Source: a virus. From it: DNA of 20,436 nt. The notes under the pieces were generated by a model. The model was not told where the DNA came from. It saw only the letters and a list, made by a program, of their open reading frames with translations, and did no database searches. The position numbers and the translations under genes are program-made. Positions 1 through 18,752 of the stretch are shown piece after piece (the first letter of the stretch is position 1; each line of letters begins with the position of its first letter). The stretch lies in IMG/VR virus record IMGVR_UViG_3300044302_000522, positions 1 through 20,436 of that record. One strand, given 5' to 3'.

Positions 1-900
1 GTTGTAGTCACCTTTTGTTTCAGGCATGTGTACCTCAGCCATACCACCTTGTTTAATGATCCACTGACAGGCTTTAATAGCCTCTTTCTCACCAGTCTTG
101 GAGTCATCGTTATCTGCCACAAAGATGTGTCGTCTGTCTTTAAGTGTTTCAAAAACGCTTTCAGCAACCTTCGATAGGTTGTAAGCATCAAACGATACAA
201 ACACAGGACATGACATGTCTCTGTAAATATCAGCACAAGTAGCGTAACCCTCACCATAGTAAATCGTGTCTGAGGTCTTGAGTATTTCTTGTCCAAGAAT
301 AAAAAAGCTACCTGCTTTTTTAGAACCAGTCAAAAAACGCTTGGTGCCATCGTCAGAGATAAATTGCATGCCCACCACAGTGAGATCATTGTTCAACATA
401 GGAATCATTAAGAGTCCATTTTCATCTACCTTCAAACCATAAGATAAAACTCCTTTGGTTTCTAAGTAGGGATGTTTCTCACAGTCTTCGCCTTTCTCCC
501 ACATAGCCTGTGAGCGTTTAGCAGATTTGGTATGTTTCTCAGCCTTCTTGACTTCGACTTCTTTCTTGAGTCGATCTATTTCTTCTCGTTCAGTCTTGGT
601 AATGGTTTGGCGTTTACGATTCTCAGGTTTCCAAATCGCTGTCGGTTGGTCTGTAGATACTCTGTAATCTCCCACCCTTCCAAATGGAATACTCTGATCC
701 ATCCACAGTTGATACCAACCTGACAGCTTCCTTTCACCACCTAAGTTGATGTAAGCACGACCAATACTCCCATCAACCACCAAACCTTTGCGTGGATCAA
801 CTTCCATGCCTTGTTCAGATAAAAAACTTAAAAATTGTGACTCTATATCTCCTGATAAAGGTCGTTCAAAATTCTTGGAAGGTGGTCGTCTAATTTTCAA
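1..900 (-). CDS. P4-type TOPRIM DNA primase (partial, C-terminus off left edge)
   Basis: The open frame runs from a TTG at 898-900 to the window edge, giving 300 residues with no stop. Residues 143-150 (HPYLETKG) and 160-200 match the region just before TOPRIM in phage P4-type primases. Residues 214-226 (YYGEGYATCADIY) carry the TOPRIM glutamate (E217). Residues 260-270 (FVADNDDSKTG) carry the DxD pair D263/D265 that binds metal. The protein should make RNA primers at the replication fork; many relatives are fused to a helicase, but that part would be outside the window. An in-frame TAG lies seven codons upstream, so TTG with AGGGA 8 bases upstream is the best start. The next ATG is residue 32, which would cut into the conserved N-terminal region. 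It is divergent from the replication operon at 990. Family assignment is firm; the start is moderately sure. Confidence 0.88.
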   Translation of the reverse strand, partial: MKIRRPPSKNFERPLSGDIESQFLSFLSEQGMEVDPRKGLVVDGSIGRAYINLGGERKLSGWYQLWMDQSIPFGRVGDYRVSTDQPTAIWKPENRKRQTITKTEREEIDRLKKEVEVKKAEKHTKSAKRSQAMWEKGEDCEKHPYLETKGVLSYGLKVDENGLLMIPMLNNDLTVVGMQFISDDGTKRFLTGSKKAGSFFILGQEILKTSDTIYYGEGYATCADIYRDMSCPVFVSFDAYNLSKVAESVFETLKDRRHIFVADNDDSKTGEKEAIKACQWIIKQGGMAEVHMPETKGDYN

Positions 901-989: not shown

Positions 990-1688
990 ATGAGTTTAAC
1001 TATTAAATCAGATAGCAAAGAGTTTGAAGCTCTACCTGAAGGACAACACTTAGGTGTCTGTTATAAGATTATAGACCAAGGGAGCAGAAATGAAACCTAT
1101 CCTAGAGATGCAGAACCAAATTCTGATAACACTAAGAAAAGAAAAACATTAAGTGTGACTTGGGAAATACCTGAGCAAAAAATGTCTGATGGTAGACCCA
1201 TGAGCATTTCTAAAACTTACACTGCATCTTTAAATGAAAACGCCACCTTATATAAAGACTTAGTTACATGGCGTGGCAAATCATTTACCAAAGAAGAACT
1301 TGATGGTTTTGACTTGGACAAAATGATAGGTGCACCTGCTAATTTAGAGATCGAACACAATGCCAATGGTAATGCTAGAGTCAAAGCTATCTTTAAACCT
1401 GATGAGTTTAAAAAGACTGAGACTGTCAATGCAGGGATTATCTTTGACCTAGATGTTTACTGTGAAGAGTTCTCAGGTGATAGCACTGAGGAAACCAAAG
1501 CCATGTGTGATATTTATGATGGTTTACCTGAATGGCAACAAAACCTAATCGAAGAAAGTTTTGAACTCAAAGGTGCCAAAGAGTCAGGTTCTACTTTTGA
1601 AACATCTGAGCCTGCTAAGAGTGGATTAGCTGATCTTGCCAAAGATGAGCCAGTCAAAACTGTTACAGACGAAGACATACCATTTTAG
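990..1688 (+). CDS. Putative ssDNA-binding protein (DUF669-like) with SSB-type acidic tail
   Basis: This 232-residue protein opens with a compact, probably beta-rich domain (about residues 10-145) containing KTLSVTWEIPE, then WRGKSFTKEELDGF and GAPANLEIEHN. Residues 150-220 are more variable and polar. The last residues, VTDEDIPF, copy the acidic hydrophobic tip of bacterial SSB proteins, which recruits replication and repair partners. The layout resembles phage DUF669-type proteins that sit beside exonucleases and annealases. The likely role is binding and protecting single-stranded DNA during replication or recombination. The ATG is preceded by GGAG ten bases upstream. It is the first gene of the rightward operon. 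The tail is directly visible; the family name is from memory of similar proteins, so ssDNA binding is an inference. Confidence 0.6.
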   Translation: MSLTIKSDSKEFEALPEGQHLGVCYKIIDQGSRNETYPRDAEPNSDNTKKRKTLSVTWEIPEQKMSDGRPMSISKTYTASLNENATLYKDLVTWRGKSFTKEELDGFDLDKMIGAPANLEIEHNANGNARVKAIFKPDEFKKTETVNAGIIFDLDVYCEEFSGDSTEETKAMCDIYDGLPEWQQNLIEESFELKGAKESGSTFETSEPAKSGLADLAKDEPVKTVTDEDIPF

Positions 1689-1755
1689 TTTCTGTTGGGT
1701 GACTTAGCTTTTTTGTTTAACATGATGCTTTCCCTAGTTGCCCACAGAATTCGTT

Positions 1756-1983
1756 ATGAGTGATACCACTGATTATGTAAACAAACCACCCCACTATACT
1801 CAAGGTGGGGTTGAGTCTATTGCCTATATCAAACAACAATTAGGCAAAAACTTTAAACATTATTGTGAAGGTAACATGCTCAAGTACAACCACAGGTTTA
1901 AGTACAAAGGTAAAGCAATAGAAGACTTAGAGAAAAGTGAATTTTATTTAAAACTATTATTACAGGAATTAGCCAATGAGTGA
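1756..1983 (+). CDS. DUF3310 family protein
   Basis: The protein has 75 residues from the ATG at 1756. Residues 7-11 (VNKPP) with the following HY, then IAYIKQQLG, HYCEGNMLKYNHRFKYKG and EDLEKSEFYLKLLL, are the typical DUF3310 pattern (an N-terminal NxPxHY and a C-terminal K/RY..R...K...ED..K...YL). These small proteins are common in phage replication clusters and are sometimes labelled nucleotide kinase, but the chain is far too short for a full kinase and no P-loop is visible. An in-frame TTG six codons upstream is open but has no better ribosome site, so the ATG is preferred. The stop overlaps the next gene's start by 8 bases, suggesting translational coupling. Function unknown. Confidence 0.8.
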   Translation: MSDTTDYVNKPPHYTQGGVESIAYIKQQLGKNFKHYCEGNMLKYNHRFKYKGKAIEDLEKSEFYLKLLLQELANE

Positions 1984-2683
1984 AGAAGGCATTAAGTTTA
2001 CAGTATATCCATTGCCATCAGCCATGATGTTGCAACACGATTTGTCTCCTGACATGGTTAATCTACTTAACAAACATCTTAATAATCTAAGGGTTGATAA
2101 GAATAAAACTTCTAGTGGTGACATCTTAGTAGGACAAATCTATTCAGGTGAACAACTTACCATGGATCATAAGTGTGATGAATTAAAACCATTCACACAT
2201 CTTATGGAGAATCTAGGAGTTCAGTACATCCAACAGTTTGTCAAAATGACTCGTTGTGGTGTTTACCCTAAACGAGTAGAGATGGATCAACTGTGGTCAG
2301 TACATTCTTATGCAGGTGACTATAATCCAGTGCACGATCATGGTACTCAGTCATTGATGGGTATTTCTTTTACCACTTGGACTATGGTGCCACCACAAAT
2401 TAAAGACAACAAAAATTTAGATTTATACAACTCATCAGGTGCAGTTGATGGGTACCTAAATTTTATTTATGGGCTCAATCAAATCATTGATCCTGAAAGA
2501 CTGCGACCTGCACAAGCAAGAATAATTAAACCTGAAGTTGGCAAGCTCTTGATGTTTCCATCATGGCTACAACACATGGTTTACCCTTTTCAGGGTGAAG
2601 GTGAAAGACGAACAGTGGCAGGCAACTTAAACTGTTGGGATGTAACACCTGAAGAAATGGAGCAATCAAAAGATGGAATTTAA
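1976..2683 (+). CDS. 2OG-Fe(II) oxygenase (PF13759-like)
   Basis: This 235-residue protein looks like a 2-oxoglutarate- and iron-dependent dioxygenase on a double-stranded beta-helix fold. Residues 108-130 (SVHSYAGDYNPVHDHGTQ...GI) carry candidate iron ligands H120 and H122, like the NpwHxH motif of PF13759. Residues 192-203 (LMFPSWLQHMVYP) carry the distal histidine H200. R211/R212 in RRTVAGNLN would bind 2-oxoglutarate. Chemistry would be hydroxylation coupled to decarboxylation of 2-oxoglutarate; the substrate cannot be told. It lies inside the replication operon, overlapping the DUF3310 gene by 8 bases and the nuclease gene by 11. That place suggests a nucleic-acid or host-protein target, but this is inference. 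It is a different subfamily from the oxygenase at 3441-4151. Confidence 0.8.
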   Translation: MSEEGIKFTVYPLPSAMMLQHDLSPDMVNLLNKHLNNLRVDKNKTSSGDILVGQIYSGEQLTMDHKCDELKPFTHLMENLGVQYIQQFVKMTRCGVYPKRVEMDQLWSVHSYAGDYNPVHDHGTQSLMGISFTTWTMVPPQIKDNKNLDLYNSSGAVDGYLNFIYGLNQIIDPERLRPAQARIIKPEVGKLLMFPSWLQHMVYPFQGEGERRTVAGNLNCWDVTPEEMEQSKDGI

Positions 2684-3449
2684 AGAAGGCGTTTACGAAG
2701 ACTTACCCTTTGAGGAATACAATGAGATACCTGCGTATCGAGCCTCAGACCTAAAGCAAGTCGATCAATGTGTGTACACATGGAAGAATAGATCAGGATT
2801 TACTGAATCACCTGCTCTATTGGAAGGTCGAGTACAACACACAGTATTTTTAGAGAACCACAAGTTTGATGATGATTTTGTCATACAACCTGCGTTAGAT
2901 CGTAGAACCAAAGCAGGCAAAGAAGCCTATGAAGACTTTATGGCAACTGTCGGTAATAGAACTGTAATCAGCCAAGACTTGTACGATGTGTGCATGGACA
3001 GACGAAGAGTGGTACAAAATTTTATTCCAAGCAATGTCAACGATAAAACTGAATTAACTGTTTGTTATAAATTGTATGGGCAAAATTTTAAGTCTCGTTT
3101 TGATTGGTACGATGGTAGGCATGTTTGGGATTTAAAAACCTGTCGTGATGCTTCACCTAGAGGCTTTAAACAAGCGATTAATGTTTATAGGTATCATATG
3201 CAGGCTTCTTTGTATGTAGATGCCTGTAAGAGCTTAGGATTGCCTGTAGAAGGATTTTCGTTCTTGGCACAGGAAAAGGCTCATCCATATCCATATGTGG
3301 TTTATACGATGTCTGAGGAAGCCTTGGAGTATGGTAGAGCTAAGAATGAGCAAGCACTACATACTTTGTTGGAAGCTGAACACAAGAAAGATTACAAGCC
3401 TTACAATGTGCAAGGCACTCAGTTAGTTGAGTTACACGATCTATGGTGA
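2673..3449 (+). CDS. PD-(D/E)XK exonuclease, RecE/exonuclease VIII-like (DUF3799)
   Basis: The protein has 258 residues with motifs in the order of the RecE-like PD-(D/E)XK fold: GRVQHTVFLE at 52-61 (with H56), E127 in the ELTV strand, RFDWYDG and WDLKTCRDAS at 142-161 (D144, D153, K155), then YRYHMQASLYVDA at 172-184 (Q177, Y181). Family members resect double-stranded ends in the 5'-3' direction to give 3' single strands for annealing. The length suits the stand-alone catalytic domain, not full-length RecE. The ATG has GGAG ten bases upstream and overlaps the oxygenase gene. With the acidic-tailed ssDNA-binding-like protein it could form a recombination module, although no annealase is seen here. 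It ends convergent with the leftward oxygenase gene, overlapping 9 bases. Confidence 0.82.
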   Translation: MEFKEGVYEDLPFEEYNEIPAYRASDLKQVDQCVYTWKNRSGFTESPALLEGRVQHTVFLENHKFDDDFVIQPALDRRTKAGKEAYEDFMATVGNRTVISQDLYDVCMDRRRVVQNFIPSNVNDKTELTVCYKLYGQNFKSRFDWYDGRHVWDLKTCRDASPRGFKQAINVYRYHMQASLYVDACKSLGLPVEGFSFLAQEKAHPYPYVVYTMSEEALEYGRAKNEQALHTLLEAEHKKDYKPYNVQGTQLVELHDLW

Positions 3450-4151
3450 TCCATTAGCCAATAACCACTCCATTCGTTTTCGATCATACAACCAAAAAAC
3501 CAATAGGTATCTATCGCCCATTTCTACAGGTAAACCTTTGTGCATGTGGGTAAAGCTAGGGAAGATCAGTGCATGACCTGTGGGTAAAGGTTTGACTTCA
3601 CCATAGTTATGAAACTCAGTGCCACCACCTTTGTACTTACCAGTGTTTAGTGGTATTACCACACTGATGTCTGCTGATTCATCGTGGTGCCAAGCACCTT
3701 GTTGTTTGTCCTTTAGATTGTAATTGGCTATTTGCACTGAACCTATGTTGGAACAATTGCGTTGCCAAATAGAATAGATAATTGGGTTAAGGACTGTTTG
3801 AACCACGAACCACATGTTGCGATATAACTCAGGCACTTGATCTCTTAACACTATCTCAGGTATTTGCCTGAGCTCATCTTCGTCTTCATTAGCTTGGAAT
3901 TTCATTGTTTTGATTTCATCGACTAACATCTTGCAAAACTTTCGTCTAAACAATGGCACTTTGTAAATGTCAGGATGTATCTTGGTAATGTGTTTTTTCA
4001 GTGGTGTTTCTTGCATACGATCTACACCATCACCTGAAGAAAACTTAGATAAGATTGGCAGGGATTCTTCGACTGCTTGATATGTGCTGTGCATGATTGA
4101 CCAATGCGATTGCATTGATAATAGATAGTTATTTAACTTATGAATTGTCAC
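3441..4151 (-). CDS. 2OG-Fe(II) oxygenase, prolyl 4-hydroxylase-like
   Basis: This 236-residue protein ends in a P4Hc-type domain. WHHDESADISVVIPLN at 154-169 gives the H155-x-D157 iron site. GGGTEF at 175-180 and GEVKPLPTGHALIFPS at 184-199 are the core strands. HMHKGLPVEMGDRYLLVFWLY at 202-222 gives the distal H204 and R214, which should hold 2-oxoglutarate. The N-terminal 130 residues are helical and unrecognised. Related enzymes hydroxylate protein side chains; the target here is unknown. The start is a GTG with no visible Shine-Dalgarno site; in-frame ATGs at residues 13 and 20 are alternatives. It is the last gene of the leftward early cluster and converges on the nuclease gene. All catalytic residues appear present. 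Confidence 0.82.
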   Translation of the reverse strand: MTIHKLNNYLLSMQSHWSIMHSTYQAVEESLPILSKFSSGDGVDRMQETPLKKHITKIHPDIYKVPLFRRKFCKMLVDEIKTMKFQANEDEDELRQIPEIVLRDQVPELYRNMWFVVQTVLNPIIYSIWQRNCSNIGSVQIANYNLKDKQQGAWHHDESADISVVIPLNTGKYKGGGTEFHNYGEVKPLPTGHALIFPSFTHMHKGLPVEMGDRYLLVFWLYDRKRMEWLLANGSP

Positions 4152-4827: not shown

Positions 4828-5081
4828 TCAATTTCTTCCATAAACTCAAAATCTGTTTCCCATAAATCATTTATTCTGTCATGGTCAATTACAGCTTTTT
4901 TTAGAGCAATCTTTCTGCCATATCCATCTACAACAGTATTGCCCTCTTCATCTAACATTTTTAAAATGCCACTGTCTATAAAAGTAGATACAAAGTATCT
5001 GCCACTAGAACCCTCTAATTGTAAAAATAAACCACTGTCATAGTGTTTTAATGCTCTTTCATATACATTTGTATTTTCCAT
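4815..5081 (-). CDS. Hypothetical acidic protein, 88 residues
   Basis: The protein starts MENTNVYERALKHYDSGLFL and ends in an acidic stretch, ETDFEFMEEIEEEA. The middle (GRYFVSTFIDSGILKMLDEEGNT) looks like short strands with turns. Its start is set by a perfect copy of the repeated seam GGAGGTAGCGTAATG. Its own end provides the variant seam for the next gene. Highly acidic small phage proteins are often inhibitors of host proteins or DNA mimics, but that is only a possibility here. No family recognised. Confidence 0.75.
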   Translation of the reverse strand: MENTNVYERALKHYDSGLFLQLEGSSGRYFVSTFIDSGILKMLDEEGNTVVDGYGRKIALKKAVIDHDRINDLWETDFEFMEEIEEEA

Positions 5082-5093
5082 TACGCTACCTCC
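5079..5093 (-). repeat. Gene-junction seam, perfect copy
   Basis: It joins the 157- and 88-residue genes; the protein end is REVA and the next start ATGGAA. Confidence 0.85.
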
Positions 5094-5554
5094 CTTGAAT
5101 TAAAACTCCAACTTACTTTTGCATCCTTGGACAATTTAGAACCTGCCATATCTCTGATTGCGTTTAATAACCAGTAAGCATCTGTCTCTACCCAGTTATC
5201 AACCTCACATGATTGATACTCAAGACATCTAACCATGTTGTAAATGTCGTCTGCTTTTAGATCACAACTACCTACACCAGTAAGCAAACTAACAGAAGCA
5301 CCATCTGTAGAATATTGAAGTATGTCTAAACAATCTTGAAAAATGCTTTGATGTTTATTTGGATTGTCTTCGTACCTTGCTACTAAACTATCAATGTTAG
5401 CTTGTGCCAAGGTCATGACCATTTGCTTTGGATCACAGTCGATCTGTTCTTTGGTTATTAAGTTATAACAATAACTGACACCACCTTGTTGTGGGTTTGA
5501 TGCCCACTTAACGATTTCAGTTATGTGTTGTGGTTCTACTAAATATGCACTCAT
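5081..5554 (-). CDS. Hypothetical protein, 157 residues
   Basis: This is the largest of the unrecognised small-cluster genes. It starts MSAYLVEPQHITEIVKWASN and carries CDLKADDIYNMVRCLEYQSCE near residues 100-120, then WVETDAYWLLNAIRDMAG. It looks helical and globular with several cysteines (C29, C39, C69 and later ones), with no signal peptide or membrane segment. The ATG overlaps the preceding stop as ATGA and has GAGGT about nine bases upstream. It ends in REVA, the standard end of genes that carry the repeated seam. I do not recognise a family and give no function. Confidence 0.75.
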   Translation of the reverse strand: MSAYLVEPQHITEIVKWASNPQQGGVSYCYNLITKEQIDCDPKQMVMTLAQANIDSLVARYEDNPNKHQSIFQDCLDILQYSTDGASVSLLTGVGSCDLKADDIYNMVRCLEYQSCEVDNWVETDAYWLLNAIRDMAGSKLSKDAKVSWSFNSREVA

Positions 5555-5775: not shown

Positions 5776-5990
5776 TTAATTTTAGTAATTTTGATACTCC
5801 ATCCATAAGGTGCATACACTGTGTGTGTGTCACCCACCTCAAGATTTTCTAAATGTTCGATGGTGAACTCGCCATCCTCATCAATACCCCAGTTACCTTC
5901 AATGCCATCAGCTACAAACTCTGCCATTGAAACTGTCTGTGGTTCTGTTTCACCATATGCTTCTTCATTCCAAGTCACTGTAAATTCCAT
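5763..5990 (-). CDS. Hypothetical acidic protein, 75 residues
   Basis: The protein starts MEFTVTWNEEAYGETEPQTV and continues with an acidic middle (WGIDEDGEFTIEHLENLEVGD), ending in a strand pair (YAPYGWSIKITKIKEVE). It is strongly acidic and probably beta-rich. Translation starts at a perfect seam copy. Its own last codons (GAG GTA GAG TAA) form a seam variant for the next gene. No family recognised; charge alone does not establish a role. Confidence 0.74.
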   Translation of the reverse strand: MEFTVTWNEEAYGETEPQTVSMAEFVADGIEGNWGIDEDGEFTIEHLENLEVGDTHTVYAPYGWSIKITKIKEVE

Positions 5991-6002
5991 TACGCTACCT
6001 CC
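5988..6002 (-). repeat. Gene-junction seam, perfect copy
   Basis: It joins the 53- and 75-residue genes. The downstream gene starts ATGGAA, as it does after the copies at 6149 and 5079. Confidence 0.85.
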
Positions 6003-6151
6003 TTTTTTATTTTTTTATCAACCTCATCAAACCAATCTAATGTTTTGATGACCTCAGCCAATAAACCTTTGTGCTGTGAATACTTGCCCAAACAAGCTAC
6101 AGCTTTTAATTCATTTGGCTTATTTTTGATTTTTACTTCGACCACTTCCAT
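5990..6151 (-). CDS. Small hypothetical protein, 53 residues
   Basis: A short gene bounded by two perfect seam copies, one giving its start and one forming its end (KKEVA then TAATG). The protein starts MEVVEVKIKNKPNELKAVAC and continues GKYSQHKGLLAEVIKTLDWF, so it looks like a strand then two helices with a basic end. Every codon of the space between its neighbours is used, and start, stop and ribosome site all match the cluster pattern. This supports it strongly despite its size. Function unknown. Confidence 0.75.
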   Translation of the reverse strand: MEVVEVKIKNKPNELKAVACLGKYSQHKGLLAEVIKTLDWFDEVDKKIKKEVA

Positions 6152-6163
6152 TACGCTACCTCC
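6149..6163 (-). repeat. Gene-junction seam, perfect copy
   Basis: It joins the 132- and 53-residue genes. Identity with the copy at 5988-6002 extends to 24 bases (6146-6169 against 5985-6008), including the lysine codons before the seam and the first bases of the next gene. Confidence 0.85.
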
Positions 6164-6549
6164 TTTTTTTTGTAATATTTACCTTTTCGATTGATGGCTC
6201 TATGTGATATTTTAAAATCACCATAATCTTCAACTTGTTCTTTATAAACCACTGTCCAAGTAGTTCTTGTGTGATATTTGTGAAGAAAGATTCCAAGGTC
6301 AACAAGCACTTTATCCCAAGCACAAACATCAATATAAAGCTGTTGACCCATATCAATGAAGGTATCATCAATATCTTTTTGTGTTGCAAGCATTTTACAA
6401 TGTAAATCGTATTCCAAACTTGCTTTTAGATATTCAGAGACAACTGGTAAAAATGTTGCATCGAATGGTATGACAGAATTGTAAGATGAAATGCCATTTT
6501 TAGACATATCACCCTCAATAGGAACCAAATAAAGTATTTCTTTTTTCAT
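6151..6549 (-). CDS. Hypothetical protein, 132 residues
   Basis: The protein starts MKKEILYLVPIEGDMSKNGI at the ATG inside a seam (GGAGTAGCGTAATG), overlapping the stop of the 38-residue gene by one base. The frame is open 32 codons further upstream, but that extension would run across the small membrane protein gene, lacks a ribosome site and reads like noise. The body includes YLKASLEYDLHCKMLATQKD and IDVCAWDKVLVDLGIFLHKY, probably helices, and a basic C-terminus (INRKGKYYKKKEVA). No signal peptide or membrane segment. Function unknown. Confidence 0.75.
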   Translation of the reverse strand: MKKEILYLVPIEGDMSKNGISSYNSVIPFDATFLPVVSEYLKASLEYDLHCKMLATQKDIDDTFIDMGQQLYIDVCAWDKVLVDLGIFLHKYHTRTTWTVVYKEQVEDYGDFKISHRAINRKGKYYKKKEVA

Positions 6550-6560: not shown

Positions 6561-6665
6561 TGTGATTGTGCCAATTAAGGCGATTAATAAAATTGGTACA
6601 GCCAATGCACTTAATACATTGGCTACTGGATTGTGGTAAAACCACATGTCGATTGTTTGTAACAT
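6549..6665 (-). CDS. Predicted 38-residue single-span membrane protein
   Basis: A tiny gene: MLQTIDMWFYHNPVANVLSA then LAVPILLIALIGTITGVA. Residues about 16-35 form one uninterrupted hydrophobic helix long enough to span a membrane. The start is set by a perfect seam copy (GGAGGTAGCGTAATG) and the end is a near-perfect one, so both borders match the real genes on either side. It could be a small inner-membrane effector, for example in superinfection exclusion or host-envelope change, but no family is recognised. It is much smaller than usual holins and has no endolysin nearby. Confidence 0.68.
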   Translation of the reverse strand: MLQTIDMWFYHNPVANVLSALAVPILLIALIGTITGVA

Positions 6666-6677
6666 TACGCTACCTCC
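6663..6677 (-). repeat. Gene-junction seam, perfect copy (GGAGGTAGCGTAATG)
   Basis: The ribosome site GGAGG, codons GTA GCG, stop TAA and overlapping next ATG are in one 15-base block. It joins the 71- and 38-residue genes. Confidence 0.85.
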
Positions 6678-6880
6678 ATATCTAATTTTTTATCAATTCT
6701 TTTTTTAAGCTCTTTAGGGCTTGTTGCAAAGATAGCCATTTTAGGAACATCATAGTAAGACTGAACAACATAATCTCCATTAAAACTATATGTTCTGCTA
6801 ACTTGAACCTTTACACCCCTGTAAAGATAGTCTTTGCTACCACCTGTTTTGTCTTTGGTAAGTGGATATTGATTACTCAT
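6665..6880 (-). CDS. Hypothetical protein, 71 residues, first gene of leftward cluster
   Basis: The protein starts MSNQYPLTKDKTGGSKDYLY and continues with paired strands (GVKVQVSRTYSFNGDYVVQSYYD), then a lysine-rich helix (SPKELKKRIDKKLDMEVA). A strong AGGAG five bases before the ATG at 6880 sets the start. A longer frame reaches 6943 but would begin inside the candidate -10/-35 region and lacks a ribosome site. It is the promoter-proximal gene of the cluster and is expected to be expressed first. Function unknown. Confidence 0.75.
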   Translation of the reverse strand: MSNQYPLTKDKTGGSKDYLYRGVKVQVSRTYSFNGDYVVQSYYDVPKMAIFATSPKELKKRIDKKLDMEVA

Positions 6881-7469: not shown

Positions 7470-9983
7470 ATTTCTTAGAGCAATCTCCCTGTCTTTTTCG
7501 TTAGGAAGAATAGTAGGTGACATGACCTCTATTGGATTTAGGTCAGGTTGGTCATCAAACAAAGGTTGATCTATTTGTGGAACCTCAAAACTTTGCATGG
7601 CACCTTGTAGGTTGTCTGTAGGTGGTTGTGCTTCTGCTTCTTCTTGTGCTCTAATCTCTGCTCTTTCTTCTCTTAATTTGTCTGTGCGACTGGTTGTTTC
7701 AATTAAATTAGCCACTCCATCTACACCACCTCTTGCAAATGTTTGACTGATTGCATAAGTAATAGGTTTAGTAGCTTCTAAAATAGCTTGTGTTTCTGTT
7801 ACTTTTTTTGGATCAACTATGTGGCTTATTAACATATCCATGTAAGCATCCTTCTGTCTGCCTACAAGATTACTTAAACCAATATCAAGACCATTGCCAA
7901 CTGCATATCCACCTAATCTTGATGGTATGTTGATTAAACTTTGTATTAAACCGCCAACTTTCACCACGCCACCTTCTAACATATTTTGATTGCCTAGAAT
8001 TTGTGTAGCTTCTTTAGTCATTAATTGATCTATGGCTAAATTAGAAAAAGTATCAGAACCACCTGCTGTTTGGATTCTGCCTACCATTTGCATCATGTTG
8101 GTCATGTCAATAAAGTTATCTAACTCTTCAGGCTCAAAAATAGCCTCCCACATTTTTGCTTTAGTGCTATATAACCTATATTCAGCCAATTCTTCAGCAA
8201 ATTCTTTTGCGTAGGCATCATCATATTGCAAACGCCTTGTTTGAGGCATAGGCATAGCTTTTGATGGGTTCGGAATACCTAAAGCTCTTAAAAAAGCATT
8301 AGGTTGGTTCAAAGGATTTTTTTGTGATGCAATGACATCATCCCATTGTGTTCTTAACCAAGTACCTTTTAAGTTTTGCCATGCTGTAGCACCATCTTCA
8401 GTTTGTTGCAAAATACCTTTGAGCTCTTTAATTTCTTTAGGCTTGATGTTGCCACTAAATAATTTTTTCGTAAGAGTAGCAGCTTTCTGTCCACCTTTAT
8501 CAGCAATACTTGCAAACTGACCCACAATACTTCTATCTAAATATTGTGCAGTACCCAAAGCATCATCATAAATAGCTGTGACTTCTTTATAAGCAGGGTT
8601 TGCTTCTTTCATTTTGTCTGAGATACTTCTGCGTAACAAACTTACTTCACGCAATAATTCAGGATCAGGTTGTTTTCCTCTACCACTTAATTTGTTTATT
8701 TGTCTTGCAAAGTTATCTTTTAAACCTTGATGCAAGAGTTCAGTGGTATTTCTAGCATTGCCAGTGTTTGCATCTAACAAGCCTTGTTCTAGTTTTTTGT
8801 ATATTGCTTTTTTCTCAGCAGAAACATTTACATCTGCAATTACATCTTGTATTTGTTTGAGCTCTTTGCTTACATCTATGGTTACATCTGTGTCATAAGC
8901 ATTTTTGTACATAGGTGCAGTTCGTTCTGCTAATTTCTTTTTTTCTAACGCAATGTAATCATCTACAGCCTTTACAACATCTAACTCTGCATCAAGAGCA
9001 GGCTTACCAGTTAATTTATTTCTCAAGTCTTGGTTTACATATTTGCCTGATTGTATAAAATCAAAAAAGTTTTCAGCGTGATAATTAATTCTTTGGTTTC
9101 TATCGTTGTAATGTTTTACTAATTTTTCACTGCCTGAATTTTTAACAATCCATGCTTCTATCTTATTACCACTGGTTCCTACTAAATCATTAGCTTCAGC
9201 CCTAGATATAGGAACATCAGGGTATTTTTCTGCCATGTATGCTAATTTGTCATCAACTGTTTTGCCACCATTTTGTATTATGTCAGCAAGAATAGATCGA
9301 CCATCAGTACCGGGGAACTTATCAAACAAACCTTTAGCAAACTTAGGAGCAGTGCTTGTTGGTACACCAAATGGAATACCACCAAAAGCTGATGAAACAG
9401 CCAAATCTTTACCTGCTTTATAAGCATCTAATGGAGGTCCACCCAACGCTGATGATAAACCTGCTCTTATTCCATAAGCATAAGCACCACCTTTAGCTGT
9501 GCCTTTGACACCACCTTTAATAGCCTCTCCAAAAGCTCTAAATTTGTTTGGGCTAAGAGCACCTTTGACAAAACCTTGTGCCATACCAACAGCACCACCA
9601 ATAACTTCACCTAAAAATTGTCCTGTAGGTCCTAAATTATTGACATAATCTACATCGTTACCAAAGTAGTCATCTTTAAATTCTTTTTTGTATTCACCAG
9701 TTTTATAATCTTTGTAAAACAAATCACCATTATCATCAAAATAATAAAACTCAGAAGGATCAATGCCTTGTTCTACTAATTCAGGAAATCTTCTTGATGC
9801 TAACCAATAAACTTGATTGGCTTCGTTGTTTGATAGACCTGCTCTGAAAGCATCAAAAAAACCACTGGCATCAGGGCTATCTTCTATAATAGATGGTTGA
9901 ATTGTTTTACTGCCTACTGGCACACCACCAAAACTATCAGGTGATCCTGTGCTTACTAGAGTTCCACCAAACTCATCAGCCAT
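7446..9983 (-). CDS. Large internal virion / DNA-ejection-type protein, 845 residues
   Basis: Residues 50-100 form a conserved-looking domain (YWLASRRFPELVEQGIDPSEF, FFDDNGDLFY-like). Residues 121-207 are glycine- and alanine-rich and hydrophobic (FLGEVIGGAVGMAQGFVKGA and on), able to enter membranes. Residues about 215-740 are mostly helical and charged, and the final 100 are acidic and proline-rich. This layout, with the position at the end of the tail operon, resembles internal/ejection proteins of podoviruses (T7 gp16 or P22 gp16/gp20 type), which leave the capsid first and help DNA cross the envelope. No lytic transglycosylase motif is clear. It is the last gene of the virion operon and begins at a TAATG junction. 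The role is inferred from layout, not from a recognised domain. Confidence 0.6.
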   Translation of the reverse strand: MADEFGGTLVSTGSPDSFGGVPVGSKTIQPSIIEDSPDASGFFDAFRAGLSNNEANQVYWLASRRFPELVEQGIDPSEFYYFDDNGDLFYKDYKTGEYKKEFKDDYFGNDVDYVNNLGPTGQFLGEVIGGAVGMAQGFVKGALSPNKFRAFGEAIKGGVKGTAKGGAYAYGIRAGLSSALGGPPLDAYKAGKDLAVSSAFGGIPFGVPTSTAPKFAKGLFDKFPGTDGRSILADIIQNGGKTVDDKLAYMAEKYPDVPISRAEANDLVGTSGNKIEAWIVKNSGSEKLVKHYNDRNQRINYHAENFFDFIQSGKYVNQDLRNKLTGKPALDAELDVVKAVDDYIALEKKKLAERTAPMYKNAYDTDVTIDVSKELKQIQDVIADVNVSAEKKAIYKKLEQGLLDANTGNARNTTELLHQGLKDNFARQINKLSGRGKQPDPELLREVSLLRRSISDKMKEANPAYKEVTAIYDDALGTAQYLDRSIVGQFASIADKGGQKAATLTKKLFSGNIKPKEIKELKGILQQTEDGATAWQNLKGTWLRTQWDDVIASQKNPLNQPNAFLRALGIPNPSKAMPMPQTRRLQYDDAYAKEFAEELAEYRLYSTKAKMWEAIFEPEELDNFIDMTNMMQMVGRIQTAGGSDTFSNLAIDQLMTKEATQILGNQNMLEGGVVKVGGLIQSLINIPSRLGGYAVGNGLDIGLSNLVGRQKDAYMDMLISHIVDPKKVTETQAILEATKPITYAISQTFARGGVDGVANLIETTSRTDKLREERAEIRAQEEAEAQPPTDNLQGAMQSFEVPQIDQPLFDDQPDLNPIEVMSPTILPNEKDREIALRNSGIARLV

Positions 9984-11359
9984 TATGGTTTCCTATATAT
10001 TTGACCATCAGTACCTACATACTCATCGCCTTTTTCTAAATCATCATAGTCATCTTGAGTTGTGACTGTCGGTAATAATGCTTTTTTTCTTGAAAGTTCT
10101 GCTTTTCTTTTCTCAAAAGCTATTTGGAAATCAGCAGGGACGAAATCATCAGCCAAACCTTCTCCACTTTCAATTTTCTTTTCTAAAAATTCTACTTCAT
10201 CAGGAGTAAACAATGGGTTTTCTTCAGACCAATTTGAAGTAAATTTATCTAATTGTAATTGCAATTTTCTACCTGTAACGCCTTGATCTTCTAATTCAAT
10301 CATTTTATTTACATAATCTTTATAAAAATCTTTATCTCTGACTGCTAATCTTTCAAGTAATTCAAGTTGTTTCATGTAACCTTCTTTGGTCGAACCAAGC
10401 GTAGGAGAAGCTGATATAAACAATTTCATTTCACGATCAGAAATAGCACCCTTGGTTTGCGAAACGATAGCCATGGTAAAACCCATAGATAACTGGTTAA
10501 GTGCTTTTTGTGGAGCAATAGCTGCTTCTGATTCACCTAACAAAAATTCTCCAAATCCCAAGCCTGATATTAATTCTCTAACTCCCAAAAGACTTCTTGA
10601 GGCAGGACCAAATTGACCACCTGCTTCCTCAATCTCATTTGCAAGAATGTAGGCTTGATTAACTTGATCTCTTATTTGATCTGATGCTCTTGATTTAGCC
10701 TCGTAAGCATCACTTTCTTTGTTAATTGATTTTAACGCTTCTTTGTCTGCAAAACTTGTATTATCACCGGGCATGTTAATTGCTGTGGTGGGTGGTTTTA
10801 CTTCTCTGCCATTTTTATTATTAATAATGTCATTTATGTCATCTCTATTTGATGGTATGTTTGCAAAAGTTTGAGATTGTGTAGTTGTTGTACCAGTAGT
10901 TTCATCTACTTCATCGTATTCAAAAGTTATGTAGTCAACTTTTTTATTGGCACTATCGATCATTTTTATTGCATATTGGTTTAAAAATTCATTGGCTTTT
11001 TGTTCATCTTGCATAGCAAGTTGAGCTGCTTGTAGACCTATTTGTTGTTGAGCCTTGGCATTTGCTTCTTGGTTTTTTTTCATTTTGTCTGATGCTCTAG
11101 TAAAACCAACACCTAAACCTGTAAAAGCTGAAGCTCCACCTGTGTTTGGAGTTGCAAGCAAACCTGCACCCAACTCAGAAGCCAAATCGTAAATGCTCAT
11201 GTTAGGAGCTTGATAAGAATATGGTGCTAATCGTTGTTGATACTTAGCAAAATTTTGATCGTAATTACCAAGTTGACTAGCTAAATCTTGTATGGTGCTA
11301 TCAGTAGCACTTACATCAATCTCTGAATCAAATGGATTGATTGGATCGTTGACTGCCAT
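9983..11359 (-). CDS. Putative internal virion protein with REM motif, 458 residues
   Basis: Residues 55-90 are glycine-rich and hydrophobic; 95-140 are helical and glutamine-rich (KAQQQIGLQAAQLAMQDEQK); 205-245 are charged helix. Residues 302-319 hold TKGAISDREMKLFISASP, a motif seen in ejection-type and other virion proteins of marine phages and present twice in the 644-residue neighbour. The C-terminus is charged and ends in a small beta segment (GDEYVGTDGQIYRKP). There is no signal peptide. It starts and ends at TAATG junctions. It is most likely a structural protein that partners the large proteins on either side; catalytic residues were not identified. Confidence 0.58.
   Translation of the reverse strand: MAVNDPINPFDSEIDVSATDSTIQDLASQLGNYDQNFAKYQQRLAPYSYQAPNMSIYDLASELGAGLLATPNTGGASAFTGLGVGFTRASDKMKKNQEANAKAQQQIGLQAAQLAMQDEQKANEFLNQYAIKMIDSANKKVDYITFEYDEVDETTGTTTTQSQTFANIPSNRDDINDIINNKNGREVKPPTTAINMPGDNTSFADKEALKSINKESDAYEAKSRASDQIRDQVNQAYILANEIEEAGGQFGPASRSLLGVRELISGLGFGEFLLGESEAAIAPQKALNQLSMGFTMAIVSQTKGAISDREMKLFISASPTLGSTKEGYMKQLELLERLAVRDKDFYKDYVNKMIELEDQGVTGRKLQLQLDKFTSNWSEENPLFTPDEVEFLEKKIESGEGLADDFVPADFQIAFEKRKAELSRKKALLPTVTTQDDYDDLEKGDEYVGTDGQIYRKP
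10403..10456 (-). other. REM motif (KGAISDREM) in the 458-residue protein
   Basis: Residues 302-319 read TKGAISDREMKLFISASP. The core matches two copies in the protein encoded at 13150-15084, although the proteins are otherwise unlike. Confidence 0.7.
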
Positions 11360-13149: not shown

Positions 13150-15084
13150 TTAGCTTGCGTTTGCACGATTGCTAAAGACCTCCATCATGTTGTACATAAG
13201 TTCTGTACCACGCTCTCTGTCTTCATCTAACGATGGGATTAGGTTAAGAATACCACCATCACCTTGTTCTAATTGATACGAACCTGCTCCTCTTACAGCT
13301 TGTCCTGTCATGACAAACTCGCCATCAGATAACATCGCAGGTACATCGTCACTGGTTTCAGTGCCCATTCCATTAATCATGCCATTTTTTCTTTCAAAGT
13401 CTTCCATGGCTACATTGCCACCTTCTGCATATTGCATTGGCATGACATAACCACCCATGTTGTAACCCATTCGATCTACAACTTCAGGAGCGACTTTGTT
13501 AAGAGCTTCTAAGCCTTTATTAGGTAAAGAACCACCTTCTGCCATTTCCATCGGCATCATCACTTCACCACCCATCATCATGCCTGTAGGTACTGCTTGA
13601 CCACCTGATAGTTCAGGCAAAGTGTTCTGTGGTAATAAACCAAACTCTACTGGATTAGGTGCTTGTTGACCCATTCTACGAGCTATTTCTGCTTCTAAGT
13701 TAAATCTTCCTGCCGCGTTCATTGTATTTAAAGGAGTTAATGGCACACCTTTGTCTTTTTTGGTTTCATCGTAAGCCATTTTACCCAAAGAACCTGCTAA
13801 ACCTAACAGTCCTGCTGTGCCTAATGCACCAAGTCCACCACCTTGACCTCCACCACCAAACATTCCACCACCTTGTCTGACAGGATCGGATGGTCTATTT
13901 CGTAACATATCTTCTATCATGCCTATTCTACTTTGACCGGGTGTACCACCACCAAAGATGCTTCTGCCACCACTTGACTGTGGAACCATGCCTGATTGTT
14001 GTAAGTTTTGCATGATCTGTGCATCAGACATTCCTTCTGCTCTTAGTCTTTCGATCCTAACTTGTGCCATTGGATCACCTGCACCAATTTCTTCAATGGT
14101 TGGTTGTTGACCACCACCAAGCAAACCACTTAAAGGACCATCACCTACTAAACCTTTTAAAGAACCTAGACCTTTGCCTATGCTACCAAAACCACCTGCT
14201 GTACCACCTGCTATAGAAGATAAGCCCGGTATTCCTGCATTTGCTATGCCACCCATGACTGTGCTTCCAACACTGCCAAGAGCACTTCCTAAGCCACCTA
14301 GACCAACTTTTGTTAAACCTTTGGTTGCTAGACCACCTAAACCACCTAAAGCACCACCTAAAGCAGTACCAACGCCCGGCACTAGCATAGCAATTGGAGC
14401 TACTTTCTTAACTACTTTTTTCAAACTCTTACCAAGTTTCTTAAAAAAACCAAACTCTTCTAATCCTGTTGATTGGTTAAGACTAGCAATACCCATACCT
14501 ACTACAGCTTCTTCAGGGTTAATACCTAATTGATTAAACTTTTCTTCAACAATTGCCTCAAACTGTGGGTCTTCCATCATTTCAGGAGGCAAGACAATCT
14601 CACCCGGTCGTACATGAGCCAAAGCTGTGTCTTCACCACCACCTGCTTGTGCTACTTGTTTTGCTACACCACCTAAAGGTGCCATCATGCCTGCCGATAA
14701 TTTTGCAATCATACGACCTAAGCCTTCAGCTTCTTCAGGATCAGTGGTCATTTGGAGTTCTTGTTGTAAAGAATTTATGGCTTGTTGGGTTTCGTCACCA
14801 CCACCCATTATGCTCATGCTAGGAACAGCATCTCTAAACATTTCCATTTCTCTGTTTGAGATAGCTCCTTTGGTAACGCCTAATCTATCTCTTAACATTT
14901 GCATGGCTTGTTCATCAGGTTGGCTATCAAAACCGAATTGACGATTCTTTCCATCTATTTCGACATCAAATTGCATGTTGCTAGGACTAGCATCTCTAAA
15001 CATTTCCATTTCTTTGTTGGATGTAGCACCCATGCCCTGAGTTAAATTGTTGATTCTTTGTTGTAATTGTTCGCTTATAGCCAT
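13150..15084 (-). CDS. Gly/Met-rich putative tail or ejection protein with twin REM and GEFV motifs, 644 residues
   Basis: Residues 20-35 and 72-89 are two REM copies (SNKEMEMFRDASPS and KGAISNREMEMFRDAVPS). Residues 152-196 hold DTALAHVRPGEIVLPPEMM and the following EEKFNQLGINPEEAVVG. Residues 212-230 are a very basic helix (FFKKLGKSLKKVVKKVAP), followed by a long glycine/alanine-rich hydrophobic part (231-325) that could insert into membranes. Residues 570-600 hold NGMGTETSDDVPAMLSDGEF then VMTGQAVRGAG, a motif common in marine phage tail and tape-measure-like proteins. The make-up suggests a virion protein delivered with DNA, or a tape-measure relative; the two cannot be separated here. 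No protease or lysin motif found. Confidence 0.6.
   Translation of the reverse strand: MAISEQLQQRINNLTQGMGATSNKEMEMFRDASPSNMQFDVEIDGKNRQFGFDSQPDEQAMQMLRDRLGVTKGAISNREMEMFRDAVPSMSIMGGGDETQQAINSLQQELQMTTDPEEAEGLGRMIAKLSAGMMAPLGGVAKQVAQAGGGEDTALAHVRPGEIVLPPEMMEDPQFEAIVEEKFNQLGINPEEAVVGMGIASLNQSTGLEEFGFFKKLGKSLKKVVKKVAPIAMLVPGVGTALGGALGGLGGLATKGLTKVGLGGLGSALGSVGSTVMGGIANAGIPGLSSIAGGTAGGFGSIGKGLGSLKGLVGDGPLSGLLGGGQQPTIEEIGAGDPMAQVRIERLRAEGMSDAQIMQNLQQSGMVPQSSGGRSIFGGGTPGQSRIGMIEDMLRNRPSDPVRQGGGMFGGGGQGGGLGALGTAGLLGLAGSLGKMAYDETKKDKGVPLTPLNTMNAAGRFNLEAEIARRMGQQAPNPVEFGLLPQNTLPELSGGQAVPTGMMMGGEVMMPMEMAEGGSLPNKGLEALNKVAPEVVDRMGYNMGGYVMPMQYAEGGNVAMEDFERKNGMINGMGTETSDDVPAMLSDGEFVMTGQAVRGAGSYQLEQGDGGILNLIPSLDEDRERGTELMYNMMEVFSNRANAS
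14827..14851 (-). repeat. Intragenic direct repeat, copy 2
   Basis: Identical over 25 bases to 14989-15013, 162 bases away (54 codons, so in frame). It encodes the core of the second REM copy (residues 72-89 as a whole). Confidence 0.75.
14989..15013 (-). repeat. Intragenic direct repeat, copy 1
   Basis: Twenty-five bases are identical to 14827-14851 in the same gene and reading frame, encoding the EMEMFRDA core of the first REM copy. This suggests a fairly recent duplication or selection on both sites. Confidence 0.75.
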
Positions 15085-17748: not shown

Positions 17749-18033
17749 TTATAGCTCCTTTATAATCTTAGCCATGTCTTCATGACCTTGTTTAACTAAT
17801 AAACCAACCATAGTAACCTTTTTAGATTCTATCGCACTGTTTATATTAGCTAAGATTATACTATAAATATGATTTTTGAAAGCCTCAGCTTGCAACCTTA
17901 CATGTTCAGGTGCATTTTCTGATATGCCTAAAATTTTTTCAGTGGTTTGTTTTGCCCAAAACTCAGGATCATGACCTTTATTTTCTGTGGTATGAACCTC
18001 TACTTTGCCTAATTGTATAAAGCTATCTGACAT
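17749..18033 (-). CDS. Conserved hypothetical protein in tail operon, 94 residues
   Basis: The protein starts MSDSFIQLGKVEVHTTENKG, followed by HDPEFWAKQTTEKILGISEN, APEHVRLQAEAFKNHIYSII and a C-terminal helix (AMAKIIKEL-like). It is almost wholly helical after residue 20, with no membrane segment. The PEFWA...KI..(I/V)SENAP..(V/I)R.QA.AF pattern is familiar from structural clusters of several marine phages, where it has no known role. It begins at a TAATG junction with the Rossmann gene and ends where the next gene starts. Confidence 0.65.
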   Translation of the reverse strand: MSDSFIQLGKVEVHTTENKGHDPEFWAKQTTEKILGISENAPEHVRLQAEAFKNHIYSIILANINSAIESKKVTMVGLLVKQGHEDMAKIIKEL

Positions 18034-18752
18034 TATCCTTTGTAAGGTTCAGGTGGTAATTGATGTTCTTGCAATGTTAATCCATCTTTTGCCAGTTCAC
18101 TATCTACCTCATCATAAGGTTTGATAATCCATTTGTTGCCATGAATTACAGTCACAAAAGGTTTTTCTAAACGATGATAGCCATAGAGCTTTTCTGTGGG
18201 TGGCACATCAGCATCTAAGACTGTTGATCTAGGGCTTACACCTACTGTAATACCATGATCCATCATTTTAGATAGCCAAAATTCAACACAAGCTCTGCCT
18301 GCTTCTGCAAAATGTAAGTCGTTTCTATAGGAAAAATCTATGCCAAATAGATCAATAGACTCTACTTCACTCCACATAGCAAATCCTAAAGCATAAGCAA
18401 CTGTGTTGTTAAAGTAAGCACATTGAGTAGCATTAGCAACTTCCTCTATAGGAAACAAAGTGGCTTTTGGTACTCTTTGATCTAATTCACAAGTGTAAAT
18501 AGGTATTTTAAGGTCAGGTAACATCTTACGCATTACCAAAGTTTGTTTGCCTGCATCATCACTGTCTAAGAATCGACTAGCAGGGTCCATCATAAACAAA
18601 CGATCTAGGTTAAAAACACTGCAAGCTGAGTTTATACCCCAAACTTCATCCCACTCTTTACCATTTTCTTTGCCAATCACATAATCTATTTGTGATATGC
18701 CAAGACCTAACAAGGCAACTCTCTTGCCCTTGAGCGATTTAATTGGTTTCAT
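18033..18752 (-). CDS. Rossmann-fold protein, DUF115/MptE-like
   Basis: The protein has 239 residues. Residues 8-20 (KGKRVALLGLGIS) look like a Rossmann strand and glycine loop. Residues 34-58 (WDEVWGINSACSVFNLDRLF and on to MMDP) follow. Residues 114-142 (FNNTVAYALGFAMWSEVESI, DLFGIDFSY) match the NxTVxxALxxAxxxGxxxIxLxGxD core of the DUF115 (6-hydroxymethylpterin kinase/MAF-like) family. HF at 147-148 and EAGRACVEFWLSKMMDHGI at 150-168 follow. Relatives act on sugar-nucleotide or pterin substrates, and some transfer nonulosonic acids to proteins. Here it is inside the tail operon with 1-base overlaps on both sides, so it is expressed with virion genes. A role in modifying virion proteins or the host surface is only a guess. 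Confidence 0.6.
   Translation of the reverse strand: MKPIKSLKGKRVALLGLGISQIDYVIGKENGKEWDEVWGINSACSVFNLDRLFMMDPASRFLDSDDAGKQTLVMRKMLPDLKIPIYTCELDQRVPKATLFPIEEVANATQCAYFNNTVAYALGFAMWSEVESIDLFGIDFSYRNDLHFAEAGRACVEFWLSKMMDHGITVGVSPRSTVLDADVPPTEKLYGYHRLEKPFVTVIHGNKWIIKPYDEVDSELAKDGLTLQEHQLPPEPYKG

What the first reader, a model, noticed from the sequence alone, without database searches (positions are those of the whole stretch)
1976..4151. Two 2OG-Fe(II) oxygenases of different subfamilies, on opposite strands around the replication operon
Seen: one with NPVHDH...FPSWLQH (PF13759-like) inside the replication operon, one with WHHD...HMHKGLPV (P4Hc-like) at the end of the early cluster, with all expected ligands present. 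Known: such enzymes are frequent in marine phages, with few substrates proven. Inference: they act at different times on different targets; the first may modify nucleic acid or a replication protein, the second a host protein.
Basis: partly seen in the sequence, partly recalled or inferred. Interest (0 to 1): 0.52.

Follow-up and report, generated by a model that had tools for sequence, protein, structure and literature searches.

The report
Two unlike phage iron oxygenases
A marine phage carries two very different iron-oxygenase genes side by side: one resembles the enzymes that hydroxylate lysine in animal collagen, and the other belongs to a common but unstudied phage family whose iron-binding site appears to be built from three histidines instead of the usual two histidines and an acid.

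Summary
Both genes are real, at the stated coordinates, in different subfamilies and on opposite strands. Gene 2 (3441-4151, minus) is more than 'P4Hc-like': sequence and predicted fold place it with lysyl hydroxylases (mimivirus L230, human LH3; Z 21-24 against 15.8 for the next oxygenase), with a canonical HxD...H...R site. It lacks the lysyl-hydroxylase dimer leucine and the glycosyltransferase domain. Relatives occur in T7-like Pseudomonas phages, before the RNA polymerase or primase genes in three of four regions read.
Gene 1 (1976-2683, plus) is PF13759/TIGR02466-like. 'All expected ligands present' is wrong for it: where 2OG oxygenases have HxD/E, it has HxH. This holds in 46 of 46 distinct family members aligned, while 30 of 30 PF13640 oxygenases from eight cultured phages have HxD/E. 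No compensating acid is conserved. The family probably has a three-histidine metal site; I found no description of this in the papers I could search.
Gene 1 is an optional insert between DUF3310 and exonuclease genes. Replication or recombination neighbours recur in unrelated phages, but sister copies follow tail-spike genes, sometimes in the same genome. DNA modification has only positional support; no cytosine methylase was found in ten related records. The substrates remain unknown.

The parts
1976..2683 (+). Gene 1: PF13759/TIGR02466-type putative 2OG-Fe(II) oxygenase, 235 aa (P0001)
   Evidence: fold model pLDDT 68.7 closest to 3bvc/2rg4
2333..2341 (+). H120-D121-H122 of gene 1: HxH in place of the canonical HxD/E
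   Evidence: H120 and H122 in 91 of 91 rows of the clade, in 46 of 46 distinct family rows
2573..2575 (+). H200 of gene 1, distal metal ligand (predicted)
   Evidence: 46 of 46 distinct rows
2606..2608 (+). R211 of gene 1, predicted 2-oxoglutarate C5-carboxylate anchor
   Evidence: 46 of 46 distinct rows
3441..4151 (-). Gene 2: stand-alone lysyl-hydroxylase-like 2OG-Fe(II) oxygenase, 236 aa (P0002)
3681..3689 (-). H155-H156-D157 of gene 2: canonical HxD
   Evidence: H155 and D157 in 71 of 71 rows; kept in 4 Pseudomonas phage relatives
3540..3542 (-). H204 of gene 2, distal ligand
   Evidence: 70 of 71 rows, 1 gap
3510..3512 (-). R214 of gene 2, 2-oxoglutarate anchor (L230 R887)
   Evidence: 69 of 71 rows, 2 gaps; L230 residue from PMC5802723 passages
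3720..3722 (-). Y144 of gene 2, corresponds to L230 Y814 (2OG C5 carboxyl)
   Evidence: 71 of 71 rows; alignment
2673..3449 (+). Exonuclease VIII-like PDDEXK (DUF3799), neighbour of both
1738..1983 (+). DUF3310 protein, upstream neighbour of gene 1
990..1688 (+). phrog_862 protein, unknown function, first gene of the plus-strand replication cassette
1..900 (-). Toprim/DNA primase, 5' part (runs off the window)

Best explanation
Two independent protein-oxidising accessory genes that share only a superfamily fold. Gene 2 is a stand-alone lysyl-hydroxylase-type enzyme. It would use Fe(II), O2 and 2-oxoglutarate, held by H155/D157/H204 and Y144/R214, to hydroxylate a lysine side chain in a host or phage protein. 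Gene 1 belongs to the PF13759/TIGR02466 family, whose metal site is predicted to be three histidines (H120, H122, H200) with R211 holding 2-oxoglutarate. It most likely oxidises a protein (or possibly a nucleotide or DNA) with this atypical site, as an optional accessory gene carried in the replication cassette. Shown by computation: frames, families, fold class, ligand pattern, neighbourhoods, presence/absence. Inferred: metal, cosubstrate use, lysine specificity, any substrate, timing.
For: Gene 2: phmmer to human LH3 4.2e-9 and mimivirus lysyl hydroxylase 9.3e-8; profile 1.7e-13. Model pLDDT 86.4; VIA Z 23.9 (rmsd 1.8, 185 aligned, 6ax6_B) and 22.9 (rmsd 2.1, 193 aligned, 8one_A), then a step down to 15.8 (rmsd 3.3, 189 aligned, OGFOD1). 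Catalytic residues conserved. Gene 1: PF13759 above cut-off; H120, H122, H200, R211 in 46 of 46 distinct rows; 30 of 30 PF13759 loci HxH against 30 of 30 PF13640 loci HxD/E in the same 8 phages; solved relatives 3bvc (2.3e-17) and 2rg4 (1.4e-16) also read HxH. Optional insert: absent in L041-L046 at an empty site.
Against: No activity or substrate is shown for either gene. The gene 2 family lacks the leucine (L230 L873) that locks lysyl-hydroxylase dimers: F in 69 of 71 rows, Y in 1, gap in 1; R, S or K in the four Pseudomonas relatives aligned. Pfam finds in gene 2 only a below-cut-off OGFOD2-like domain, so an OGFOD2-like function is possible. Gene 1's model is of modest confidence (residues 146-181 under pLDDT 50) and its fold matches do not separate protein hydroxylases (Z 13.2) from AlkB/ALKBH1 (11.8/12.3). 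A three-His site could mean another metal or another reaction. The profile-profile comparison aligned only the C-terminal motif of the two families, so the H122/D157 equivalence rests on motif spacing and on PF13640 as control.
Confidence: 0.55

Rival explanations
1. Gene 1 modifies phage DNA or a nucleotide (TET/AlkB-like), which is why it sits with replication genes.
For: Inside the DUF3310-exonuclease cassette; between nrdA and nrdB in L138, after nrdA in L140; relatives between gp43, uvsX and gp41-type genes or next to the recombination endonuclease. Fold matches include AlkB/ALKBH1.
Against: Sister copies (51-57% identity) lie behind tail-spike genes, and G001 and G018 carry two copies each. 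No C5-cytosine methylase in 10 of 10 related records. No thymidylate-synthase-type gene in the four records with the replication copy; four other records have one. Near-identical phages lack the gene. All records may be fragments.
Confidence: 0.2
2. Gene 2 is not a lysyl hydroxylase in function but a prolyl or other protein hydroxylase (OGFOD2- or PiuC-like) on a lysyl-hydroxylase-type fold.
For: OGFOD2-like domain weakly matched in 17 of 17 family members; NCBIfam Fe2+-dependent dioxygenase (PRK05467) weakly matched (1.4e-5, far under cut-off); the dimer leucine is lost.
Against: Solved lysyl hydroxylases beat all other solved oxygenases listed by 5.6 Z units or more and by sequence. No OGFOD2 structure was among the rows, so this comparison is open.
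Confidence: 0.3
3. Gene 1 is not a 2OG oxygenase at all: the three-His site binds another metal or runs a cosubstrate-free reaction, as in cupin dioxygenases (recalled: cysteine dioxygenase, Dke1).
For: HxH...H with no conserved acid.
Against: R211 is as invariant as the histidines (46 of 46) at H+11, about where 2OG oxygenases keep their 2OG-binding arginine; overall fold matches are 2OG oxygenases.
Confidence: 0.2
4. Gene 1 is a passenger without a current function.
For: Absent in very close relatives.
Confidence: 0.05

Closest known systems
PF13759 / TIGR02466 (2OG-FeII_Oxy_5), incl. solved 2rg4 and 3bvc
   Same: Gene 1: family match, HxH...H...R, fold
   Different: Below the TIGR02466 cut-off (40.5 of 62.5 bits); no function known for the family in the papers seen
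Cyanophage and pelagimyophage 2OG oxygenases (P-SSM2, S-SCSM1, HTVC008M)
   Same: Gene 1: same domain, same ligand pattern, often among replication/recombination genes
   Different: Only 19-30% identity for the cyanophage/pelagimyophage rows of A3; other phage type
Procollagen lysyl hydroxylases (human LH3/PLOD3, mimivirus L230)
   Same: Gene 2: fold and HxD...H...R, Y814 equivalent
   Different: No glycosyltransferase domain; dimer leucine L873 replaced by F; Y801 and Y831 equivalents not aromatic
2OG oxygenases of T7-like Pseudomonas phages (phTUNSv, Salado, P-2FD)
   Same: Gene 2: relatives with the same catalytic residues
   Different: 27-34% identity for the four aligned; genes lie before the RNA polymerase or the primase

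Membership tests
Canonical 2OG-Fe(II) oxygenase (gene 1) | HxD/E...H iron triad | tested here: not met
   HxH...H in 46 of 46 distinct PF13759 rows; PF13640 control HxD/E 30 of 30
Canonical 2OG-Fe(II) oxygenase (gene 1) | Arginine after the distal His for 2OG | tested here: met
   R211 46 of 46
PF13759 (gene 1) | Pfam match above gathering score | tested here: met
   53.6 bits against 27
TIGR02466 (gene 1) | NCBIfam cut-off | tested here: not met
   40.5 bits against 62.5, E 2.5e-10
TET/JBP DNA hydroxylase (gene 1) | Companion C5-methylase supplying the substrate | tested here: inconclusive
   0 of 10 related records, all possible fragments
TET/JBP or AlkB (gene 1) | Closest fold | tested here: inconclusive
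   AlkB Z 11.8 (rmsd 3.4, 165 aligned); best 14.3 to 3bvc (rmsd 3.8, 176 aligned)
Lysyl hydroxylase LH/PLOD (gene 2) | HxD...H and 2OG Y/R | tested here: met
Lysyl hydroxylase LH/PLOD (gene 2) | LH fold | tested here: met
   Z 23.9/22.9, rmsd 1.8/2.1, 185/193 aligned
Lysyl hydroxylase LH/PLOD (gene 2) | Dimer leucine (L230 L873) and aromatic pocket | tested here: not met
   F in 69, Y in 1, gap in 1 of 71 rows; W129 aromatic 71 of 71, but Y801 falls in a gap and Y831 at D161/I162 (residues from PMC5802723)
Lysyl hydroxylase LH/PLOD (gene 2) | Hydroxylates peptidyl lysine | not testable with these tools
   needs an assay
OGFOD2-like (gene 2) | PF25238 above gathering score | tested here: not met
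   27.4 bits against 31 for gene 2; 17 of 17 family members match at E 0.01 or better, best 3.5e-8

The most novel reading that the evidence does not exclude
PF13759, a common 'oxygenase' family of marine phages, is a natural three-histidine branch of the 2-oxoglutarate oxygenases: the metal-binding carboxylate has been replaced throughout the family by a histidine while the 2OG arginine is kept, giving chemistry different from the ordinary hydroxylases carried in the same genomes. The phage of this window combines this enzyme with a stand-alone collagen-type lysyl hydroxylase.
Probability: 0.4. Interest if true: 0.72.

Novelty: new variant of a known kind. Interest (0 to 1): 0.52.

Why it matters
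One cultured marine T4-like phage carries 24 '2OG-Fe(II) oxygenase' genes, ten of them with the pfam13759 domain, and their viral functions 'have not been specifically investigated' (PMC9602691, passages read). If the family lacks the metal carboxylate, its members should not be read as ordinary hydroxylases, and published guesses (effects on 2OG levels, DNA repair) need rethinking. The claim is directly testable with one purified protein. Gene 2 adds a small lysyl-hydroxylase-type enzyme with relatives in cultured Pseudomonas phages, where a knock-out and proteomics are simple.

Tried and rejected
Tried without gain: A2 against genome contigs found no relative; A1 found one, in a Sphingobacteriales MAG (L173), whose genome (G021) carries five PF13759 matches; of 61 genomes searched from that phylum, only G021 matched. 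Defence-gene profiles gave for genes 1 and 2 only generic '2OG' models. Rfam and tRNA scans: none. Promoter-like sites: 19 found, 23.9 expected. hhalign of the two families aligned only the C-terminal motif.

Rejected: collagen-glycosyltransferase annotation of the Pseudomonas relatives ('glycosyltransferase' in several records): the four relatives aligned (in L095-L098) are about 230-243 aa with only the hydroxylase part. A hydroxylysine-glycosylation pair with the gene at 18033-18752: that gene is in 15 of 20 related records and seems a core virion-module gene, so co-occurrence says nothing. PLOD membership in the strict sense: dimer lock not met.

Counts and dropped rows: 29 of 31 rows are HxH; the two others (L177:5045-5557 and L178:4187-4882) were dropped before alignment A3. 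The second is a PF13640 match above cut-off; the first is a PF13640 match below cut-off and has no PF13759 match at its place. Ten near-duplicate rows were also left out of A3. One search used the 30 loci made by the tool out of 82 PF13759 and the 30 out of 73 PF13640 matches; 46 distinct of 50 rows. Rows are ORFs of the fetched loci with a BLAST match over more than 150 residues at E 1e-10 or better. The presence/absence count (57 with, 20 without gene 1, of 77 distinct exonuclease DNAs from 103 loci) is biased, since the loci were fetched with genes 1 and 2 as queries.

Full report
The window is a 20.4-kb virus record of a tailed phage without close cultured relatives; its primase is at most about 32% identical to cultured phages in the rows shown. 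Structural genes on the minus strand match phrog_3287, phrog_644 and phrog_2941. A related record, G001, is 60 kb, so the window is probably a fragment.

Gene 1. Frame 1976-2683 matches PF13759 at E 3.1e-14, phrog_81 and TIGR02466 below its cut-off. It sits between DUF3310 and an exonuclease VIII-like gene. Its relatives in L002-L024 and L099-L137 lie in the same cassette, upstream of the exonuclease where the contig reaches it, with or without a recognised DUF3310 gene before them. L041-L046, whose gene 2 is 93% identical, lack gene 1: DUF3310 runs straight into the exonuclease start. Gene 1 is therefore an optional accessory.

The metal site is the main result. 2OG oxygenases carry HxD/E (stated for example in PMC10598087 and PMC11481915, passages read). 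Gene 1 reads H120-D121-H122, then H200 and R211. In 91 distinct rows of its own clade H120 and H122 never vary. Across far relatives, position 121 changes freely while both histidines stay. In 46 distinct rows from podovirus-like contigs, cyanophages, pelagimyophages and bacterial contigs, W107, H120, H122, H200 and R211 are invariant; the only column with 60% or more acidic residues is 208 (37 of 46), three residues before R211. As a control, PF13640 matches from the same eight cultured phages are HxD or HxE in 30 of 30, PF13759 matches HxH in 30 of 30. The two solved relatives also read HxH; I could not read their coordinates. A three-His facial site with a kept 2OG arginine is the simplest reading. 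Literature searches with '2OG-Fe'/phage/hydroxylation, PF13759, three-histidine/facial triad, TIGR02466/2RG4 and HXH listed no paper that I recognised as describing this for PF13759; I read passages of only some of those listed. The HXH search returned only SidB, with HXH...E, which is different.

Context of gene 1. Cultured relatives lie between DNA polymerase, uvsX/recA and primase genes in P-SSM2, S-SSM7 and S-SCSM1 and beside the recombination endonuclease in HTVC008M and Mosig. IMG/VR relatives lie between nrdA and nrdB (L138) or after nrdA (L140). Against a replication-only role: Syn30's copy is near baseplate genes, copies in L153, L167 and L254 follow tail-spike-like genes, and G001 and G018 carry two copies each. 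No C5-cytosine methylase was found in ten related records; a thymidylate-synthase-type gene was found in 4 of these 10, none of them among the four with the replication copy.

Gene 2. Frame 3441-4151, minus. The nearest solved proteins by sequence are human LH3 and mimivirus L230. The model (pLDDT 86.4) matches them at Z 21-24, with the next oxygenases at 15.8 and below. From passages of PMC5802723, L230 uses H825, D827, H877, Y814 and R887; gene 2 has H155, D157, H204, Y144 and R214. The lysyl-hydroxylase dimer lock L873 is F200 here (69 of 71 rows), Y801 falls in a gap and Y831 at D161/I162, so that dimer is probably not formed. The glycosyltransferase domain is absent. In IMG/VR the gene is widespread: 70 loci, and 19 of 25 records searched. 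In cultured phages 187 of 192 matching records are Pseudomonas phages by name. Of four regions read, two have it a short way before the RNA polymerase, one directly before the primase and one upstream of a helicase. In L084 a relative lies between a virion protein and a tape-measure-like gene.

Mechanism. Gene 2: most likely O2- and 2OG-dependent hydroxylation of a lysine in a protein; lysine specificity is inferred from the fold only. Gene 1: oxidation of an unknown, probably protein, substrate at a three-His iron site. Neither substrate nor timing is shown.

Verdict. Interest 0.52.

Noticed in passing
5070-5096, 5979-6005, 6140-6166, 6654-6680: The same gene junction (minus strand GGAGGTAGCGTAATG: ribosome-binding site inside the upstream gene's C-terminal codons, then the next start) recurs at four early-gene boundaries.
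   Followed up: no
14817-14868, 14979-15030, 10399-10450: A 52-nt repeat encodes a shared peptide (GAISNREMEMFRDA-like) twice in ORF 13150-15084 and once, diverged, in ORF 9983-11359: possibly a processing or packaging signal of virion proteins.
   Followed up: no
18033-18752 (-): A 239-aa protein with a Rossmann-like start, no PHROG match and no convincing Pfam match and no match in cultured phages, conserved in 15 of 20 related records.
   Followed up: partly
L118:78-638 and L123:344-898 (-): Related phages carry a second, diverged gene 2-like frame (29% identity over 102 residues) upstream of the primase.
   Followed up: no
L173, L182, L189, L191-L193 (genome G021): One Sphingobacteriales MAG carries five PF13759 matches, at least two close to the phage clade (L173/L192, L191); these may be phage contigs binned with it.
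   Followed up: partly
L180:2785-4605: P-SSM3 carries two PF13759 genes shortly before a restriction endonuclease and a DNA methyltransferase.
   Followed up: no
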